Source: Myxococcales bacterium
GTDB taxonomy: Bacteria > UBA10199 > 2-02-FULL-44-16 > JAAZCA01
Assembly (NCBI GenBank): GCA_012513515.1
Contig: JAAZCA010000031.1
Span: 1 to 64,000, forward strand
Length of the DNA: 64,000 bases
Direction of reading: 5' to 3'
Of this stretch, positions 16,101 through 60,505 are shown piece by piece. The number at the start of each line of letters is the position of its first letter. Positions within the stretch are counted from its first letter, which is position 1. The notes under the pieces are model-generated. The model did no database searches, had not been told where the DNA came from, and was given only the letters and a program-made list of their open reading frames with translations. Made by a program: the position numbers and the translations under genes.

Positions 16101-16333
16101 TATTCAGGCTTGAGGCCGCAGATCCCAATTCTAACAGCATATCCAGGCTTTATGTAGGCAAACAGCTCTCTGACAGACTCGGAATAAATTTTTCAACCGA
16201 CATAGGAACCAATGAATCGGAACAGACTATCATAGCCGAATATCTCCTGACCGATCATCTACTTCTGAGGGGCTCACAATCTACTGACAACGTTTCGGAA
16301 ATAAGCGGGCTTCTACGCTTTAGGATGAGATGA
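13106..16333 (+). CDS. tamB: TamB-like translocation/assembly module protein (AsmA-like family)
   Basis: A 1075-aa protein with an N-terminal signal anchor (about residues 12-31), then roughly a thousand residues of repeating amphipathic beta strands, the pattern of a lipid-shuttling beta-groove. The C-terminal DUF490 domain is clear: ASEGEIYYLGLLFDVDKGF, DLSATSPSGPLEKRD and VSLIMFGIT. E. coli TamB is about 1260 aa, so this is a slightly short member. It overlaps mpl and the Omp85 gene by 4 bp each. TamB proteins bridge inner and outer membranes and act in phospholipid transport and beta-barrel insertion with their Omp85 partner. Confidence 0.9.
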   Translation: MNSGRRDTHRLRNLIASVALMIGFIGVASWLVDRPFIVSHVLSLVNMKSAWKVEAEFIDIDFVTMSVSARDIRAEHRKEQRRLSIQNLKVGLNPFGLLKGEILFDEFDISGLSASFPKREIKKKKQPGKINLARIILLKNIALDEGIIRQMDIKVGDEFEISTDEARLSISSDLFSRTNIKLRVDGALAEKSGERIAGSGTVLLDASTNFGKWGDEFPYVNDLSGKLRISDARMSGLDMREFSAKAEYKSDLLILKDLFIKTGEHPLSGRLSADLSSEEFNLSIGIKNPIYLPYIAKPSITFDTGGKVWGEIELEGTGFLPSKSEGKGHVDISYLFDANPESPVNLKSALDWKNGMLHLVNAALTTEGVHIPASGFVDIPGKKMSFSAKGENFPIENFFKTFNDPRLKKIFGRTDFSGTFEGWGKKFQADVKGTAKNAGWFPITTEIANAHFTATYDRLALVGEVFDSLGKTGNADLVIDMGEKLPSGIRSKKISLKASLKNHTLDNSFEFMNLTGAGDGSIDLSGTHESVTAKASGAIRGGSIKGIKFESASLDADISKKKAVFKNIQIAAFRSKSASGGEVIADISPDGTRFHGTPTPGITIDASYANNSHRWNIKEISIEADASEEDDLGPTRATMNGYITPEGPIDLRVKGVLDLTYTRPALPMLRSGSGEVGLDLHFTGQSENPAIKGSIDLNGNSLMFRNFPLSMENLTGSFVFEGQKINMKDVKSRSDEGQMSFNGWIEHKNMRESAVDLSVSGNAMRFRNSENNLSLEFEGSLELKGKFPSPHLSGDISIIDGIYAKDFNILDQFIKDKSDNKKSYAQEVSYEINPSLDLRVKNSGDFEIKNNVGRIWLRFDAEVKGSLQKPVVSGAISASEGEIYYLGLLFDVDKGFVEFRGNYQEPYIEVHASKEVSIYNISLALYGNTDNLRLDLSATSPSGPLEKRDVVSLIMFGITEQEREMYARERSGDYTSSLLAKSLSSVVERPFTKYTRLDIFRLEAADPNSNSISRLYVGKQLSDRLGINFSTDIGTNESEQTIIAEYLLTDHLLLRGSQSTDNVSEISGLLRFRMR

Positions 16334-19056
16334 ATAGAACACTGAGTACAATTGCGGCTATAGCCGCTGTTTTGATATTCGCAACGGCATCGCCATCGGC
16401 GATAGCCGGACAGAGTACCGTCTCGGAAATAAATGTCGCGGGGCTTAAAAATATCTCGCCAGATACCGTAAGATCCATCATGCCCCTGAAGGTCGGCGAT
16501 GAATTTTCCTGGTCTGAGCTTGAAAGTTCTATAGGATACCTTAGGAAGTGGGGAGTCTTTGACGTCATAGAGGCAAATCCCAGGATTACGGAAGAGGGAG
16601 TCTCTATAGACATGCGGTTGGAAGAGGCACTCATAGTATTTTCGATAGACATCGCGGGAAATTATCCTTATTTGGAAAACAAAATAAGGAAATACCTCTC
16701 CCTCCACGCCGGAGATATCTACACTCCGGAAAGAGTAGATGAGCAAAAGACAAGGATCGAAGATTTCTACAAGCGCAACGGATTCTTTTCAACCAGCGTC
16801 TATTACGATGTGAAATCAGAGCCAGAATCAAATGGCGTCGCCATAACCTATTATATCAAAAGGGGTGAAATCCTCCGGTATAGGAATATCAACATATCCG
16901 GCAACAAGGCATATCCATCCGGAAGATTCATATCCAAGATAAATACGCTGAGGCCATATTCAGCGAGAAGGTTGAAGGACGCAATCCGCAGCCTGAGAGA
17001 ATTTTACAAAAACAACGGATATCCCAAAGCTCGCATAAGAATAGCTGAACAGAGAATGGATTTCGATGCAAAGCGCGTTGACTTGAATGTGGAAGTATAT
17101 GAAGGCCCGCGAGTGGAGGTTATTTTCACCGGAAGCAAACATCTGAACAAAAAAACTCTCAGAAAAGCCCTGACGATATTTTCGGAAGGAAACATAGACC
17201 AATACGAGATAGAAGTAAGCGCCGATGGGATCACCAGGCTCCTGAATAAAAAGGGATACCCGAAAGCTGAAGTAAAAGGGTCGCGCCAAACACTCAAAGA
17301 CGGAACGATCTTGATAACATTCGATATCGACGAGGGGAAATCACAAAAGATACGTTTCATTAAATTCGAAGGGCGCAAGGACGCTGATACCTCCAAAATA
17401 ATGAGCGAAATGCGGAATAATCCGGCATCTTTTAAAAAGAGTGGAGCCTACTACCCCTCCGAGAGAGATCGCGACGACAAATCCATACAGAAGGCGATGC
17501 AATCCGAAGGATATCTGGATGCAAAGGTGGGCGAATGGGATGTAAGACCCACTCCGCAAGGTTACGCGCTAGATATCGAGATACCCATAGAGGCAGGAGA
17601 AAGGACGTTCGTAGGCAAGGTCATATTCAAGAACTCAGATGGGCTTAACCACAAAAAACTCCTGAAGGCATCAGGGTATAAAATAGGAGAACCTTTTGAC
17701 CTTCCATCACTTGAAAACAGCAAAGAGAGGCTCCTCACATTTTTGGCCGATAACGGGTATCCATACGCAAAAGTAGAAGCGCACTACGAACTGAAGCGGA
17801 ATAAGAGGGAACTCCTCCAGTCAAAAATAATTTACGACATAGAAAAGGGAAACAAAGTTCGAATAGGCGAAATCTTGATAGTGGGCGACGTCCTGTCGAG
17901 CCAAAAGGCGATAAAGAGCGCCATGAACATCAAGGAAGGAGACCTGTTCAGTTACAGGAAAATAATCGAAAGCCAGTTAAACATCAGAAGGCTGGGTCCT
18001 TTCGCATCGGTAAGCGTGGCGGCGATCGGTCTGGAAGATAAGCGCGAAACTGTTTCGCTACAGGTAAAGGTGGAAGAACAGAGGCCGTTTTTGATCGATC
18101 TCGGACTGAACTATTCCACCGATGAAAGCTGGACGGGATCAATGCGATTCACAAATTTAAACGCCTTCGGCTGGGCCAAGACGAACTCATTGGAGCTAAT
18201 CGCTGGCACAAAACTGACGCGCGCCGAACTGGTATGGCACGATCCGAGATTTTTAGGTTCCAGCTTTGAAATGACATCGAACGCATGGGCGCAGCATAAG
18301 GTGCGCCCGGCCTATTCTTTCGTCCAGGTGGCCGGAGGATTCGGATGGTTCAGAAGATACCGCCGCTTTGGAATGCTCTTCAGATGGGAACTCGATAGAA
18401 ATTATTTTCTCTCAGGAAACGCCACAGTAGCCGACGCTGACAGTCTTCGAAACAACACCGTATCGAAAATAGCTATATCAGGAAACATCGATACGCGCGA
18501 TAACTTCTCAGATCCGAGAAAGGGATTCTACACAGCTCTTAACTGGGACACCTTCAACGAAATCAAGGGGGCGGAGGCCAATTTCTTCAGAATTTCATGG
18601 CAGGGCGAAAATGACATCAGCCTGTTCGACTGGCTCACGTTCAATACGGCCGGAAGATTTGCGAAGCTCCTCACGATAGGAAGCAACATCAGCATACCGA
18701 TAAACGAGATGCTATTCCTAGGAGGCGGCGATACGATACGCGGATTCGATGAGGATTCTTTAGGACCTGCGGACGCAGCAGGTAAGCCGGTCGGAGGAAG
18801 ACTGCGTTGGATCTTCAACGAGGAGATGCGCATACGCGTGATGAAAAATTTTCAGCTGGCGGGCTTCTTCGATATCGGCAGCCTCACCGATTCATTTGGT
18901 GCAATCAATTGGAATACGGTCAGGAGATCGGTAGGCCTCGGTATAAGATATGTAACGCCGGTAGGACCCATACGCGTCGACTACGGCTTCAAATTGGATC
19001 GCAAGACCGGCGAATCACGCGGAAGGGTGCATATCACGTTCGGTTATGTGTTTTGA
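16330..19056 (+). CDS. Omp85-family outer-membrane assembly protein (BamA/TamA)
   Basis: A 908-aa protein with a signal peptide (MNRTLSTIAAIAAVLIFATA...SAIAG), POTRA repeats to about residue 585, and a C-terminal 16-strand barrel of about 320 residues. The lid-loop motif MLFLGGGDTIRGFDEDSLGP (VRGF/IRGF motif) and the terminal GRVHITFGYVF with a final Phe are characteristic. About 550 residues before the barrel leave room for roughly seven POTRA domains; E. coli BamA has five and TamA three. Co-translation with tamB (ATGA) argues for a TamA-like partnership, though it could also be the cell's BamA. Confidence 0.92.
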   Translation: MNRTLSTIAAIAAVLIFATASPSAIAGQSTVSEINVAGLKNISPDTVRSIMPLKVGDEFSWSELESSIGYLRKWGVFDVIEANPRITEEGVSIDMRLEEALIVFSIDIAGNYPYLENKIRKYLSLHAGDIYTPERVDEQKTRIEDFYKRNGFFSTSVYYDVKSEPESNGVAITYYIKRGEILRYRNINISGNKAYPSGRFISKINTLRPYSARRLKDAIRSLREFYKNNGYPKARIRIAEQRMDFDAKRVDLNVEVYEGPRVEVIFTGSKHLNKKTLRKALTIFSEGNIDQYEIEVSADGITRLLNKKGYPKAEVKGSRQTLKDGTILITFDIDEGKSQKIRFIKFEGRKDADTSKIMSEMRNNPASFKKSGAYYPSERDRDDKSIQKAMQSEGYLDAKVGEWDVRPTPQGYALDIEIPIEAGERTFVGKVIFKNSDGLNHKKLLKASGYKIGEPFDLPSLENSKERLLTFLADNGYPYAKVEAHYELKRNKRELLQSKIIYDIEKGNKVRIGEILIVGDVLSSQKAIKSAMNIKEGDLFSYRKIIESQLNIRRLGPFASVSVAAIGLEDKRETVSLQVKVEEQRPFLIDLGLNYSTDESWTGSMRFTNLNAFGWAKTNSLELIAGTKLTRAELVWHDPRFLGSSFEMTSNAWAQHKVRPAYSFVQVAGGFGWFRRYRRFGMLFRWELDRNYFLSGNATVADADSLRNNTVSKIAISGNIDTRDNFSDPRKGFYTALNWDTFNEIKGAEANFFRISWQGENDISLFDWLTFNTAGRFAKLLTIGSNISIPINEMLFLGGGDTIRGFDEDSLGPADAAGKPVGGRLRWIFNEEMRIRVMKNFQLAGFFDIGSLTDSFGAINWNTVRRSVGLGIRYVTPVGPIRVDYGFKLDRKTGESRGRVHITFGYVF

Positions 19057-32530: not shown

Positions 32531-32680
32531 GTACTTCTTTCGGGGAGGCAAACGATTCGCGCCACTATAAAAAAGATACATATCAGCGACTTAACCGGTT
32601 CGGCCAGTCCATGCAAGCGAAAATACTTAAGTAACCTCCGAAAAATCAGCAAATTCAGAGCGCCTCTAAAAACCATGCGC

Positions 32681-32895
32681 TTGTCATCCCCGAGTGACGG
32701 AAAGGTCGTCATCCCCGAATGACGAGAAGGTTGTCATCCCCGAGTGGTATAATCGGGGATCCCGCAACAGCCGTGAAGTGGGAAAAACAGAAGCTAGAAG
32801 CTAGAAAAACCTCGCCTGTAGAAATCTCGCTTCTCGCTTCCAGATTCCAGCTTCTTGATGTTTTGGTCGATGGTCAATCGTCCATGGTCGAAGTT
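32681..32895. repeat. Mosaic intergenic repeat copy (long, inverted order)
   Basis: Three tandem TTGTCATCCCCGA-type units lead into GTATAATCGGGGATCCCGC, then AGAAGCTAGAAGCTAG, CTCGCCTGTAGAAATC, CCAGATTCCAGCTTCTTGA and GGTCGATGGTCAATCGTCCA. The second half is the reverse complement of the element at 41912, indicating movement in both orientations. The rest of the gap to 33082 has no gene that I can see. Confidence 0.85.
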
Positions 32896-33082
32896 ATTGT
32901 TGCCTCTAGCTTTTCAGAGGTTCCTTAAAGGATCAAAAGAAACAAAATCACAAACGAACAGCTTATTGCCTTGCCATGACGCGCTGCGTGGAATAGTCTG
33001 TGGGCATTCAAATTCGCTCTTTCATAAAGTTGCCCGCAAAATGTCCATTCTCCTTTGAACCGAATAAAACGAGGGAGGGGTT

Positions 33083-56412: not shown

Positions 56413-57486
56413 ATGCAAAAATTCAACAAGACCCTTCTTGAAGAGATCCTGTCGCTCCCCACAATGAGTTTCCATGAAACCGCAGTGGCGACATTCGTAA
56501 GAATCTATTCTGCAGCGATAGGCCTTAAAGTCGATGAAGATCGCTTCGGCAATATACTTGTCAAATACAAGGGCGGTTCGGGAAGGCCGGTTACATTCAC
56601 AGCGCACATGGACCATCCCGGATTCGAAATCGTATCCTCATCAGGAAAGAAGGGGACCGCCGCCCTGTGGGGGCGCGTCGACGTAAAGTTCTTTTCAGGA
56701 TCAAGCGTAGCGATCCATACGGAGAGAGCTAAGATCAAGGGGAAGATTGGAAAGCTCATCAAATCCAAAAAATATTTTGGCAAGCCATGCTTCGAAATCT
56801 CATCGGATGAAGAATTTTCGGAAGGCGATTTCGGGCATTACGATCTCCCCGGTTTCAAACAGAAGAAAGATATCCTCCATGCCAGAGCGGCGGACAACCT
56901 CGCCAGCGTAGCAGCGATATTGGAACTCATGACGAGGCTGGTCGCCAAAAAATCCAAGTCGAATGTCTGCGGCCTCTTTACGCGTGCGGAGGAAGCCGGC
57001 TTCATCGGCGCCTTCGGTGCCATCGAGGCCGGAACAGTTTCCGCTAAGGATCCCATAATAGTCATGGAATGCAGCTCCGCGCCCGGAGGCAAGGTCGATA
57101 TCGGCGGAGGGCCTGTAATCAGGTCCGGCGATGCCCAGAGTTCCTACGACCCCGCGGTTGAGGCGTGGCTGATCGACTGTGCAGCCTCGGCAAAATCCAG
57201 ATCGAAGGGATTCAAAAGCCAACGGGCGCTTCTAAAAGGCGGCCGCTGCGAAGCATGCGTATATGTTGCGGAAGGCTTCCCTGTCGGCGGGCTGGCGCTG
57301 GCACTTGGCAACTATCACAACCACGGCCCGAAGGGATACGCTGCGGAATACATCTCGGCATGCGACTATGAAAACATGATTTTACTCATGGAAGAGGTCG
57401 CCGCATCCCCGATGCCCAAGAATATCTTCAAGAAAAAACTCGCCCCGCTATGGAAAAATTACAGGGATCTGAAAAAGAAATTATAA
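56413..57486 (+). CDS. M42-type metallopeptidase
   Basis: A 357-aa cytosolic zinc aminopeptidase-like protein. Ligands in order: AHMDHPGFE (His/Asp), ARAADNLASVAAILEL (bridging Asp), TRAEEAGFIGA (catalytic Glu-Glu), VMECSSAPGG, and HNHGPKGYAAEYIS (late His). This is the M42/M20-like pattern. The start is ATG 56413, giving MQKFNKTLLEEILSLPT as in the family; the longer frame starts within a repeat. The last codons form part of a 114-bp sequence repeated after the Fic gene at 58824. Confidence 0.85.
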   Translation: MQKFNKTLLEEILSLPTMSFHETAVATFVRIYSAAIGLKVDEDRFGNILVKYKGGSGRPVTFTAHMDHPGFEIVSSSGKKGTAALWGRVDVKFFSGSSVAIHTERAKIKGKIGKLIKSKKYFGKPCFEISSDEEFSEGDFGHYDLPGFKQKKDILHARAADNLASVAAILELMTRLVAKKSKSNVCGLFTRAEEAGFIGAFGAIEAGTVSAKDPIIVMECSSAPGGKVDIGGGPVIRSGDAQSSYDPAVEAWLIDCAASAKSRSKGFKSQRALLKGGRCEACVYVAEGFPVGGLALALGNYHNHGPKGYAAEYISACDYENMILLMEEVAASPMPKNIFKKKLAPLWKNYRDLKKKL

Positions 57487-57535
57487 ACATTTTAAAATTA
57501 TTTAATACTGCATCTTGATTCTTAATCTTCATCTT
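57422..57535. repeat. Direct repeat flanking the Fic islet (left copy)
   Basis: This 114-bp segment (last 22 codons and stop of the M42 gene plus ATTTAATACTGCATCTTG-type 3' sequence) is repeated without mismatch at 58824-58937. Similarity continues with changes into the pyrimidine-rich CTTAATC repeats to about 57575. Confidence 0.9.
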
Positions 57536-57707
57536 TATCTTTATCTTAATCCTGATTCTGATCTTAATAACGATATTTTCGAATATAAGTTAGTTTTACA
57601 AATGCTGATCAAAGATCAGCGATCAGGATTCGCCCCCTCCCGCAACAACCGTGACTGGTGACTCGTATTAAAATTTGCTCGACCATCCGGCAGTATTGGT
57701 AAGCACA
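57536..57707. other. Pyrimidine-rich simple repeat and mosaic fragment, no gene
   Basis: Degenerate TCTTTATCTTAATCCTG-type hexamer repeats (to about 57575), an inverted repeat GCTGATC-AAA-GATCAGC (57604-57620) and a mosaic fragment CCGTGACTGGTGACTCGT (57650-57667). Confidence 0.55.
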
Positions 57708-57741
57708 TTTACAATCGTCTAACTATCGTCTATAATTAGAC
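57708..57741 (+). promoter_or_regulatory. Fic promoter with overlapping operator palindrome
   Basis: TTTACA (57708-57713), 17-nt spacer, TATAAT (57731-57736), near consensus. The palindrome GTCTA-TAAT-TAGAC (57728-57741) covers the -10 box, and ATCGTCTA occurs twice just upstream. The start is predicted 1-2 nt before the ATG 57745, so the mRNA is probably leaderless. Confidence 0.6.
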
Positions 57742-57744
57742 TAT

Positions 57745-58779
57745 ATGTTACAGCCCAAGTATAGCGTTTCTGATAAATTACTTAATAATATCAAGACTAT
57801 AGCAGTGATATGCTCAGAGCTTAATAATCAGGCATTTGCCAAAACAATACTATCTAGTTTTGAGGCAAAGGCTAATTCCCTCTCTGCATATTCATCCACG
57901 AGCATTGAAGGAAATCCAATCCCCCTTACGGATGTCAAAAGACTTATTAAATCAAAACCGGAAAAGATCAGAGATACCGAGCGGGAGGTGCTGAACTATA
58001 ACAGCGCCTTTGAATACCTTAAAAATGAAATTGCTGGCGGTCAAATATCCATAAGTGAAAAACTGATCTGCACTATCCAAAAGAAAATTACCGAAGGGCT
58101 GATCGAAAAGCACAGATGTGGAAAATTCAGAACTGAACCTGTTTTCGTAAACGACCCCAGAACGGGAAAGCCGGCATATCTCCCTCCCGACCATCAAGAT
58201 GTTGGCAAGCTGATGAAAGAATTATTAGATTTTGTAAAGCAAAAGCGTGGCAAGATCGATGCGCTCATTCTGGCCGGAATTTTTCACAAGGAATTTGTGA
58301 TCATTCATCCGTTTGTAGATGGTAATGGTAGAACTGCAAGACTAATCACAAAAGCACTTCTTGCAGATATGGGGTTGAACACATTCAATCTCTTCAGCTT
58401 CGAAAATTATTACAACAGAAATGTCACCAAATATTTTGTAAAGGTTGGAGCGCTTGGTAACTTTTACGATATTGGAAACGACCTTGATCTTACAGAATGG
58501 CTGGAATATTTTACCGATGGAATAATAGATGAGTTGTTGCGCGTTAAAAAGGAGCTCTCTGCCGAAACTATTTCACCTAAAACCAAACTATTTCCCCATC
58601 ACAACAAGATTCTCGATTTTATAGATCGCAACGGATTCATAACGGATAGGGACTATTCAAAGCTGACCAAGCGTGCAAAGGCAACCAGAGCTTTGGATTT
58701 TAAAAAGTTGATGGAACTTGGACTTATTAAACGCTTTGGCAAAGGACGAGCGATTCATTACAAGAAAAAGACAAGATGA
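57745..58779 (+). CDS. Fic-domain AMPylase-like protein with N-terminal inhibitory motif
   Basis: A 344-aa Fic/DOC protein. The active-site motif HPFVDGNGR (188-196) is complete (His for attack, Asn/Gly/Arg for phosphate binding). STSIEG at residues 51-56 fits the (S/T)xxxE(G/N) self-inhibitory helix of class II Fic proteins. A winged-helix region at the C-terminus (NKILDFIDRNGFITDRDYSKLTKRAKATRALDFKKLMELGLIKR) may autoregulate. Codon use is AT-richer than neighbours, and the gene is bounded by 114-bp direct repeats, so it was probably acquired. Fic proteins usually transfer AMP to a protein; target unknown. Confidence 0.9.
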   Translation: MLQPKYSVSDKLLNNIKTIAVICSELNNQAFAKTILSSFEAKANSLSAYSSTSIEGNPIPLTDVKRLIKSKPEKIRDTEREVLNYNSAFEYLKNEIAGGQISISEKLICTIQKKITEGLIEKHRCGKFRTEPVFVNDPRTGKPAYLPPDHQDVGKLMKELLDFVKQKRGKIDALILAGIFHKEFVIIHPFVDGNGRTARLITKALLADMGLNTFNLFSFENYYNRNVTKYFVKVGALGNFYDIGNDLDLTEWLEYFTDGIIDELLRVKKELSAETISPKTKLFPHHNKILDFIDRNGFITDRDYSKLTKRAKATRALDFKKLMELGLIKRFGKGRAIHYKKKTR

Positions 58780-58823
58780 AGCCGGGCGTTTTTTTGCCTG
58801 TGTCGAGATTGCGTGGCCCCCAC

Positions 58824-58937
58824 ATATCTTCAAGAAAAAACTCGCCCCGCTATGGAAAAATTACAGGGATCTGAAAAAGAAATTATAAACATTTTAAAAT
58901 TATTTAATACTGCATCTTGATTCTTAATCTTCATCTT
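58824..58937. repeat. Direct repeat flanking the Fic islet (right copy)
   Basis: The 114-bp copy of 57422-57535 begins ATATCTTCAAG and contains the M42 3' end, including its TAA, now a non-coding remnant. Confidence 0.9.
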
Positions 58938-59131
58938 CGTCTTTATCTTAATCTTGATTCTTAATCTTAATCTTGATTTTGTTGTACTTAAATATGATGG
59001 TGAGATTCCTTCGTTTTTAAGCTTTGATTATAATGAGGAATGAGTTTGGTAAAAAAATGTTATAAATAGATAAAGTGTTTGCCCCGCGCCCGTGCGGCTG
59101 ATATAGCGCTGCGAGACAGTCAGGAGGATTT
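58938..59131. other. Gap upstream of tryptophanase, AT-rich simple repeats
   Basis: CTTAATCTTGATTC-type simple repeats continue to about 58980, then AT-rich sequence with TATAAT at 59029-59034 but no clear -35. No TnaC-like leader peptide is evident. A CAGGAGG ribosome site precedes the ATG. Confidence 0.45.
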
Positions 59132-60505
59132 ATGGTCAGAAAAGTCGTCCCATATAAGATCAAGATCGTAGAGCCGATAGCGCTGCTATCCCGCGAGGAT
59201 CGCGAGGCAAAGATTTCCGAGGCAGGGCTCAACATTTTTCGCCTCAGATCTAAGCACGTCTACATAGACCTTCTCACCGATTCGGGAACCGGCGCGCTCA
59301 GTCAGGAGCAGCTTTCACAGATGATGATAGGGGATGAATCGTATGCTGGATCCGAGTCCTTCTTCAGGCTGGAGAAGGCGATCCGCGACATCATGCATCT
59401 TCCTTACGTGATCCCGGTCCATCAGGGGCGTGCGGCAGAACAGGTTCTTGATTTCACTCTTGTAAGGGAAGGGCAGGTCGTCCCCGGCAACACGCATTTC
59501 GACACGACCAAGGCGCATATCGAATTCCGCGGAGGGCGAACTATAGATTGCACTATCGCGGAGGGGCGCGATTCGACGGTGATGTATCCGTTCAAGGGGA
59601 ATATAGATATGAATCTCCTCGAGCATGCGTACAAAAAGTATGGCCGTGAAAAGATATCGTATGTTCTCATAACGGTCACGTGCAATTCCGGCGGGGGGCA
59701 GCCGGTCTCGATGGAAAATATCAGGCAGGTTTCGAGCTTCTGCGCCGAGAAAGGGCTGCGCCTCTTCTTTGACGCCGCGCGTTTCGCGGAAAACGCCTAT
59801 TTCATACAGCAGCGCGAACCGGGCTACGCCGACAAATCTATAAAGGGAATCGTGCGCGAGATGTTTTCATATGTCGAAGGATGTACGATGTCGGCGAAGA
59901 AGGACGGCCTCGTTCCGATCGGCGGTTTCCTCGCCCTGCGCGATGAGAAACTCTATGAAGAGATGAAGCCCACGGACATCCTCTTCGAGGGTTTCTACAC
60001 CTACGGCGGAATGAGCGGCATGAACATGGATGCGATGGCGCAGGGGCTTTGCGAGGTCGTAGAGGAAAGTTATCTAGCGCACCGCATAGGTCAGACATCA
60101 TATCTCGGCGAAGAGCTTACTAAGAGGGACGTTCCGATAGTGAGGCCTGTCGGAGGTCACGCTGTATTTATCGATGGGAGAAGATTTTTCCCGAACGTTC
60201 CAGAAAGCGAATTTCCCGCGCAGCTTCTCGTTGTGGAGCTATATCGCGAAGGCGGAGTGAGGGCGGTAGAGGTCGGCTCATGCCTCGCTGGTCGCGATCC
60301 CGATAGCGGAGATAACATCCGTCCAGCCCTTGATCTATGCAGACTTACGATCCCGAGGCGCGTTTACACCGAGGAGCATTTCGATTACGTAGCCGACGTC
60401 GTTGACGAGGTTTTCAAGAAACAGCGAAGCAGAAAGCGCGGCCTCGGATTCGATGTGGAGACCAAGGGAATTCGCCACTTCACGTCGACGTTTAAGGAGT
60501 TGTAA
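59132..60505 (+). CDS. tnaA: Tryptophanase (tryptophan indole-lyase) family enzyme
   Basis: A 457-aa PLP-dependent beta-eliminating lyase. IDLLTDSGTGALS, GDESYAGSESF, HQGRAAEQ, FDAARFAENAYFI, the PLP lysine in MSAKKDGLVPIGG, and the C-terminal LTIPRRVYT match the tryptophanase/tyrosine phenol-lyase family over full length. GVRAVEVGSCLAGRDPDSG matches tryptophanase (GIRAVEIGSFLLGRD) rather than tyrosine phenol-lyase (SMERG with Arg), and SAKKD rather than SGKKD. It would make indole, pyruvate and ammonia. The Fic islet lies upstream and a repeat array downstream; no permease is adjacent. Confidence 0.85.
   Translation: MVRKVVPYKIKIVEPIALLSREDREAKISEAGLNIFRLRSKHVYIDLLTDSGTGALSQEQLSQMMIGDESYAGSESFFRLEKAIRDIMHLPYVIPVHQGRAAEQVLDFTLVREGQVVPGNTHFDTTKAHIEFRGGRTIDCTIAEGRDSTVMYPFKGNIDMNLLEHAYKKYGREKISYVLITVTCNSGGGQPVSMENIRQVSSFCAEKGLRLFFDAARFAENAYFIQQREPGYADKSIKGIVREMFSYVEGCTMSAKKDGLVPIGGFLALRDEKLYEEMKPTDILFEGFYTYGGMSGMNMDAMAQGLCEVVEESYLAHRIGQTSYLGEELTKRDVPIVRPVGGHAVFIDGRRFFPNVPESEFPAQLLVVELYREGGVRAVEVGSCLAGRDPDSGDNIRPALDLCRLTIPRRVYTEEHFDYVADVVDEVFKKQRSRKRGLGFDVETKGIRHFTSTFKEL

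What the first reader, a model, noticed from the sequence alone, without database searches (positions are those of the whole stretch)
57422..58937. Fic gene on a 1.4-kb islet bounded by 114-bp perfect direct repeats
The repeat contains the last 22 codons and stop of the M42 gene, leaving a non-coding copy after fic. This resembles integration at the 3' end of a gene or tandem duplication and replacement. The fic gene is AT-richer, has its own near-consensus promoter with an operator, and no integrase is present.
Basis: partly seen in the sequence, partly recalled or inferred. Interest (0 to 1): 0.65.

Follow-up and report, generated by a model that had tools for sequence, protein, structure and literature searches.

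The report
Captured fic gene between duplicated ends
A single bacterial AMP-transferase gene that came in from distant relatives, with its own promoter, sits between two identical 114-base copies of a neighbouring gene's tail; most likely ordinary recombination without an integrase made this arrangement, and the gene's conserved three-part operator is the most useful part to test.

Summary
A perfect 114-bp direct repeat (57422-57535 and 58824-58937) brackets fic. It carries the last 20 complete codons plus the stop of the upstream M42 gene, not 22. Similarity continues to 148 bp (96.6%) and fades inside an ATCTTA-type tract; the left edge is abrupt. The left copy runs on into a 72-bp dispersed repeat with 22 good copies in this genome and none in sister genera. 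fic is horizontally acquired: homologues of 59-69% identity occur only in distant families where the control gene BamA is 32-34% identical, while sister genera keep lonB-M42 without fic or a second tail. The transferred unit carries a leaderless promoter with three operator half-sites about 11 bp apart; that motif occurs once in each of six fic-bearing genomes and in none of 40 others. Apart from XerC and XerD, no tyrosine recombinase was found in the 99.3%-complete genome, and no serine recombinase. Best reading: integrase-free capture by one-sided homologous recombination in the M42 tail/tract with an illegitimate joint at the other end, duplicating native DNA. A later local duplication around an older fic is not excluded, because no conspecific empty site was available. 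The protein is a class II-type relative of SoFic. Interest is modest.

The parts
56413..57486 (+). M42-family aminopeptidase gene; its 3' end was duplicated
   Evidence: Pfam Peptidase_M42 E 8.9e-22; 66% and 57% identical in sister genera
57422..57535 (+). left copy of the perfect 114-bp direct repeat (M42 tail, stop, spacer, start of hexamer tract)
57510..57568 (+). ATCTTA-type hexamer tract in which the two copies begin to differ; presumed crossover zone
   Evidence: pairwise alignment; 148 bp at 96.6%
57563..57632 (+). copy of the 72-bp dispersed core (22 good copies in this genome)
57633..57667 (+). CCCCCTCCCGCAACAACCGTGACTGGTGACTCGT module of the dispersed repeat, breaking off at the fic side
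   Evidence: multiple alignment of copies
57708..57736 (+). fic promoter TTTACA-17-TATAAT; the -10 box ends 8 nt before the ATG, so the mRNA is probably leaderless
57713..57744 (+). operator: three (C/A)GTCTA-type half-sites about 11 bp apart, at -29, -18 and -8 from the ATG
   Evidence: conserved in six genomes; unique to fic promoters in 46 genomes
57745..58779 (+). fic: Fic-domain AMP-transferase with inhibitory motif STSIEG, catalytic motif HPFVDGNGRTAR and a C-terminal winged helix
58780..58823 (.). 44-bp unique spacer after fic, ending at the presumed illegitimate joint (58823/58824)
   Evidence: no match elsewhere in the loci held; no stable fold
58824..58937 (+). right, non-coding copy of the 114-bp repeat
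58912..58980 (+). right hexamer tract, without core, running into the tnaA upstream region
59132..60505 (+). tryptophanase/tyrosine phenol-lyase family gene, the native right-hand neighbour
   Evidence: Pfam Beta_elim_lyase; 81% identical and next to M42, convergent, in sister genus G002

Best explanation
The islet is an integrase-free capture. (1) Shown: a single-gene unit, promoter plus three-site operator plus fic, moved between distant lineages. (2) Inferred: a DNA piece carrying fic next to M42-tail/tract/core sequence recombined by homology in the tract downstream of M42, while its other end was joined without homology at position 57422 inside the M42 3' end. This could be homology-facilitated illegitimate recombination, or equivalently a single crossover by an end-joined circle. 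It duplicates exactly the native DNA between the joint and the crossover, leaves M42 intact on the left and strands a dead copy of its tail on the right. (3) Inferred from relatives: fic makes a self-inhibited class II-type Fic AMP-transferase, probably a SoFic-like toxin or anti-phage protein. Its winged helix probably binds the three-site operator and limits its own leaderless transcription. (4) Inferred: recombination between the two copies would delete fic cleanly and restore M42-tract-tnaA.
For: HGT: fic is 59-69% identical in families f4, f7, f17 and f20, where BamA is 32-34% (29% partial in G038), against 52-59% in sister genera. Sister genera have lonB-M42 without this fic and with one tail. 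fic is about 8-12 GC points below its flanks in five other host genomes. A viral contig carries a 64% homologue. Unit: promoter and operator are conserved in six genomes and occur once per fic-bearing genome and nowhere else in 46 genomes. Capture: abrupt left edge, fading right edge inside a tract, 114/114 native tail; the left copy continues into a species-restricted dispersed repeat. No integrase. Precedent: in E. coli, 56 of 60 such integrations carried a duplication of the homologous segment, sized 109-950 bp in the 14 sequenced (PMC3240628). Protein: catalytic and inhibitory motifs, SoFic model E 1.8e-46, C-terminal H-H-H-E-E fold at pLDDT 73-91.
Against: No conspecific or congeneric fic-less genome was available, so the empty site is a prediction. 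The donor end at the joint is unknown, so microhomology cannot be tested; only GCCC is shared nearby, in register. The circle version needs a donor that already carried the M42 tail. A duplication made later around an existing fic gives the same map. The dispersed repeat next to fic could be a coincidence: such mosaic repeats occur about every 8 kb in the window.
Confidence: 0.5

Rival explanations
1. fic was already downstream of M42; later a tandem duplication of 57422-58823 followed by tract-to-tract deletion, or a template switch from the right tract into the left one, added the second tail. The repeat then has nothing to do with the arrival of fic.
For: All differences lie in the hexamer tract, as expected of a tract-mediated event. 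The repeat is young (0 of 114) while the age of fic is unknown. Repeated modules are abundant in this genome.
Against: It needs two or more independent events, and coincidence to bracket exactly the one foreign gene.
Confidence: 0.3
2. Site-specific integration at the 3' end of M42 by an element carrying a replacement gene end (as known for phages at gene 3' ends), now reduced to fic.
For: The M42 3' end is rebuilt on the left and a displaced copy lies on the right; this geometry fits attL/attR. A fic homologue occurs on a viral contig.
Against: No tyrosine recombinase beyond XerC/XerD and no serine recombinase. The core of the tail has no exact match in IMG/VR. A foreign element would carry a diverged tail, not an identical one. 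The other fic homologues sit in unrelated places without flanking repeats.
Confidence: 0.07
3. Assembly artefact: an assembler joined two strain variants through the repeat.
For: The genome is a 42-contig draft and many contig ends fall in repeats.
Against: The joint CCCCCAC|ATATCTTC at 58823/58824 is not itself a repeat and needs reads that span it. The two copies also differ beyond 114 bp, which a copied k-mer would not.
Confidence: 0.06
4. Transposition: dispersed or MITE-like elements on both sides mobilised fic as a composite.
For: fic2 on contig C6 lies between direct copies of the same repeat family, and a 23S-IVP gene pair on C14 lies between 98%-identical copies.
Against: The fic1 islet has no terminal inverted repeats or target duplication, and its repeat contains host coding DNA. 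Two close core pairs are not clearly above chance (expected 0.41, P(>=2) = 0.06).
Confidence: 0.05

Closest known systems
SoFic and class II Fic AMP-transferases (SoFic of Shewanella; EcSofic, single-protein anti-phage toxin, PMC12249575)
   Same: Fic fold, HPFxDGNGRxxR, N-terminal (S/T)xxxE(G/N) inhibitory motif, C-terminal winged helix, single gene; PADLOC SoFic model E 1.8e-46
   Different: Far below the NCBIfam SoFic equivalog cut-off (52 vs 550 bits), no Fic_N hit; carries a conserved leaderless promoter with a three-site operator
Homology-facilitated illegitimate recombination and single-crossover integration of end-joined DNA (PMC3240628)
   Same: Foreign DNA flanked by a direct duplication of about 0.1-1 kb of host sequence, one homologous and one illegitimate joint, no integrase
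   Different: Here inferred from one genome only; the anchor would be a repetitive tract
Small variable segments flanked by direct repeats (PMC2884548)
   Same: Short gene-sized insert between backbone genes, bounded by direct repeats
   Different: 66-94% of those repeats were under 30 bp; this one is 114 bp and contains the end of a gene
Mobile insertion cassettes (passenger gene between IS or MITE ends)
   Same: Small passenger gene without transposase; fic2 on contig C6 has MITE-like copies on both sides
   Different: fic1 has no inverted-repeat ends or target duplication

Membership tests
Class II Fic AMP-transferase | Fic domain with HxFx(D/E)GNGRxxR | tested here: met
   HPFVDGNGRTAR at residues 188-199; Pfam Fic E 6.8e-19
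Class II Fic AMP-transferase | (S/T)xxxE(G/N) inhibitory motif N-terminal to the Fic core | tested here: met
   STSIEG at residues 51-56, identical in all five homologues that cover that region
Class II Fic AMP-transferase | AMP transfer activity relieved by loss of the inhibitory helix | not testable with these tools
   needs enzyme assay
SoFic equivalog (NCBIfam NF046030) | score over the curated cut-off | tested here: not met
   52.1 bits against 550
Integrative element with att sites at a gene 3' end | integrase in the element or elsewhere in the genome | tested here: not met
   no integrase in the islet; only XerC and XerD genome-wide, no serine recombinase
Integrative element with att sites at a gene 3' end | direct repeats with the host gene rebuilt at one end | tested here: met
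   114-bp repeat, M42 intact on the left
Transposon or MITE cassette | terminal inverted repeats and short target duplication around fic | tested here: not met
   no inverted-repeat pair closely brackets fic
One-sided (homology-facilitated) integration | one homologous and one non-homologous joint | tested here: inconclusive
   abrupt left edge and fading right edge fit, but donor and empty site are unknown
Horizontally acquired gene | similarity and distribution conflict with vertical genes | tested here: met
   fic 59-69% against BamA 32-34% in the same genomes; absent from sister genera

The most novel reading that the evidence does not exclude
This lineage repeatedly captures solo accessory genes (fic1 here, fic2 on C6, a 23S-IVP pair on C14) without integrases by using its own dispersed tract/core repeats behind gene 3' ends as homology anchors. 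It would be an integrase-free route for single-gene defence cassettes, and the Fic family it carries would regulate itself through a three-site operator over a leaderless start.
Probability: 0.15. Interest if true: 0.55.

Novelty: new member of a known kind. Interest (0 to 1): 0.33.

Why it matters
It shows how a single toxin or defence-type gene can be gained, and be easily lost again, without any mobile element, leaving a readable scar. The operator found only in front of this Fic subfamily gives a direct test of whether Fic proteins with a winged helix control their own synthesis.

Tried and rejected
Att-site or phage origin of the tail: no exact match to its 39-bp core in IMG/VR. Rfam RNA in the region: none. 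Terminator after fic: no stable fold. A second M42 paralogue as source of the right tail: only one M42 in the genome, and the flank of the right copy is not homologous (12 of 40 bases). fic on plasmids: only distant relatives, all under 60% identity. Operator pattern in viral contigs: none. Flanking repeats around the fic homologues: none bracketing fic. Phylum search added nothing, because the held phylum is this class. Whole-protein fold comparison was not run, because model confidence was low outside the C-terminal domain (mean pLDDT 54.7).

Full report
What is there. The exact 114-bp direct repeat is at 57422-57535 and 58824-58937, 1402 bp apart. It starts two bases before a codon boundary of the M42 gene and holds its last 20 complete codons, the stop and a spacer. 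It is the only exact repeat of 50 bp or more in the window. Similarity runs on to 148 bp at 96.6%. The differences all lie in a tract of ATCTTA-like hexamers, after which the copies part: the left one continues into a dispersed repeat and fic, the right one into the upstream region of tnaA. To the left of the repeat only 12 of 40 bases agree. So one edge is sharp and the other fades in a repetitive tract.

The dispersed repeat. The sequence after the left tail is not unique. A 72-bp core, CTTAATAACGATATTTTCGAATATAAG...GGATTCGA, usually preceded by the hexamer tract, has 22 good copies in this 1.79-Mb, 42-contig genome and none in the sister genera (alignment). In 17 of 22 cases the gene before it points the same way, so it tends to sit behind gene 3' ends.

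fic is foreign. The two best sister-genus loci (L009/G002, L010/G001) keep lonB-M42. In one, tnaA follows at once in the opposite direction; in the other a transporter-like gene follows. Neither has fic or a second tail at this site. Homologues of 59-69% identity occur in four other families of the class. In those genomes BamA (window 16330-19056) is 32-34% identical where found whole, but 52-59% in the sister genera. fic is about 8-12 GC points below its flanks in the five other host genomes, and a short viral contig holds a 64% homologue beside a phage-type methyltransferase.

The unit that moved. DNA similarity to the homologues begins about at the promoter. All six upstream regions share TTTAC, then three half-sites of the type (C/A)GTCTA near -30, -19 and -8 from the ATG, the third sometimes inverted. 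A pattern for this operator occurs exactly once in each of the six fic-bearing genomes, in front of fic, and in none of the other 40, with zero control hits. The -10 box ends 8 nt before the ATG, so the message is probably leaderless (inference). The C-terminal domain is predicted with good confidence as H-H-H-E-E, a winged helix (residues 281-344, pLDDT 73-91), while the rest of the model is poor. Self-regulation by this domain is therefore likely but untested.

The protein. It has HPFVDGNGRTAR and the inhibitory motif STSIEG (motif definition in PMC3667792), matches the PADLOC SoFic model with E = 1.8e-46 and falls far below the NCBIfam SoFic equivalog cut-off. It is a class II-type Fic related to SoFic, which is reported as a single-protein anti-phage toxin (PMC12249575). 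Function here is inferred.

How the islet arose. The genome has no mobile integrase: the two tyrosine recombinases over the cut-off are XerC and XerD, and no serine recombinase was found. The repeat consists of native DNA identical between copies (95% upper limit of divergence 2.6%), although the right copy codes for nothing, so the duplication is recent (or kept alike by gene conversion). A one-sided event explains both edges at once: homology in the tail/tract, an illegitimate joint at 57422. In E. coli, integration of non-replicating DNA by this kind of route gave duplications of the homologous segment in 56 of 60 clones, 109-950 bp in the 14 sequenced (PMC3240628). The rival is that fic came first and a tract-mediated duplication came later; both give the same map, and no conspecific fic-less genome was available to decide.

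Parallels. A second Fic gene (fic2, contig C6, L111 3389-4528) lies between direct copies of the same repeat family (84% over 318 bp), its stop codon lying in the hexamer tract; a pair of 23S-IVP genes on C14 lies between copies 98% identical over 105 bp. Two such close pairs are not clearly beyond chance (expected 0.41, P = 0.06), and a third Fic gene on C9 has no such repeats. This is a lead only.

Verdict. Real, mostly explained by known processes: a horizontally gained single gene with its own promoter and a recombination scar. The operator is the most testable new detail.

Noticed in passing
window 57708-57744: Three-site operator over a leaderless fic start, unique to this Fic subfamily in 46 genomes of the class.
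   Followed up: yes
window 32629-32926; many contigs of G000: MITE-like family with terminal inverted repeats TTAAGTAACCTCTGAAAA (76 hits against 4 control), about 140-380 bp, with mosaic interiors of shared modules; many assembly contigs end inside one.
   Followed up: partly
L111 2966-4822 (G000 contig C6): Second Fic gene between direct copies of the MITE-like/core repeat; its stop codon is supplied by the hexamer tract.
   Followed up: partly
L110 3071-4108 (G000 contig C14): Two related 23S-rRNA-IVP (four-helix bundle) genes in inverted order between 98%-identical direct copies of the core.
   Followed up: partly
22 core copies in G000, e.g. window 57563-57632: The 72-bp core lies downstream of a gene in the same orientation in 17 of 22 cases, so insertion preference or a role in transcript ends is possible.
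   Followed up: no
window 59132-60505; L009 7093-8466: tnaA-like gene is convergent with M42 in the sister genus but codirectional here, so the neighbourhood was rearranged at least once.
   Followed up: no
window 58780-58800: AAGCCGGGCGTTTTTTTGCC right after fic looks like the 3' half of a terminator without its 5' arm.
   Followed up: partly
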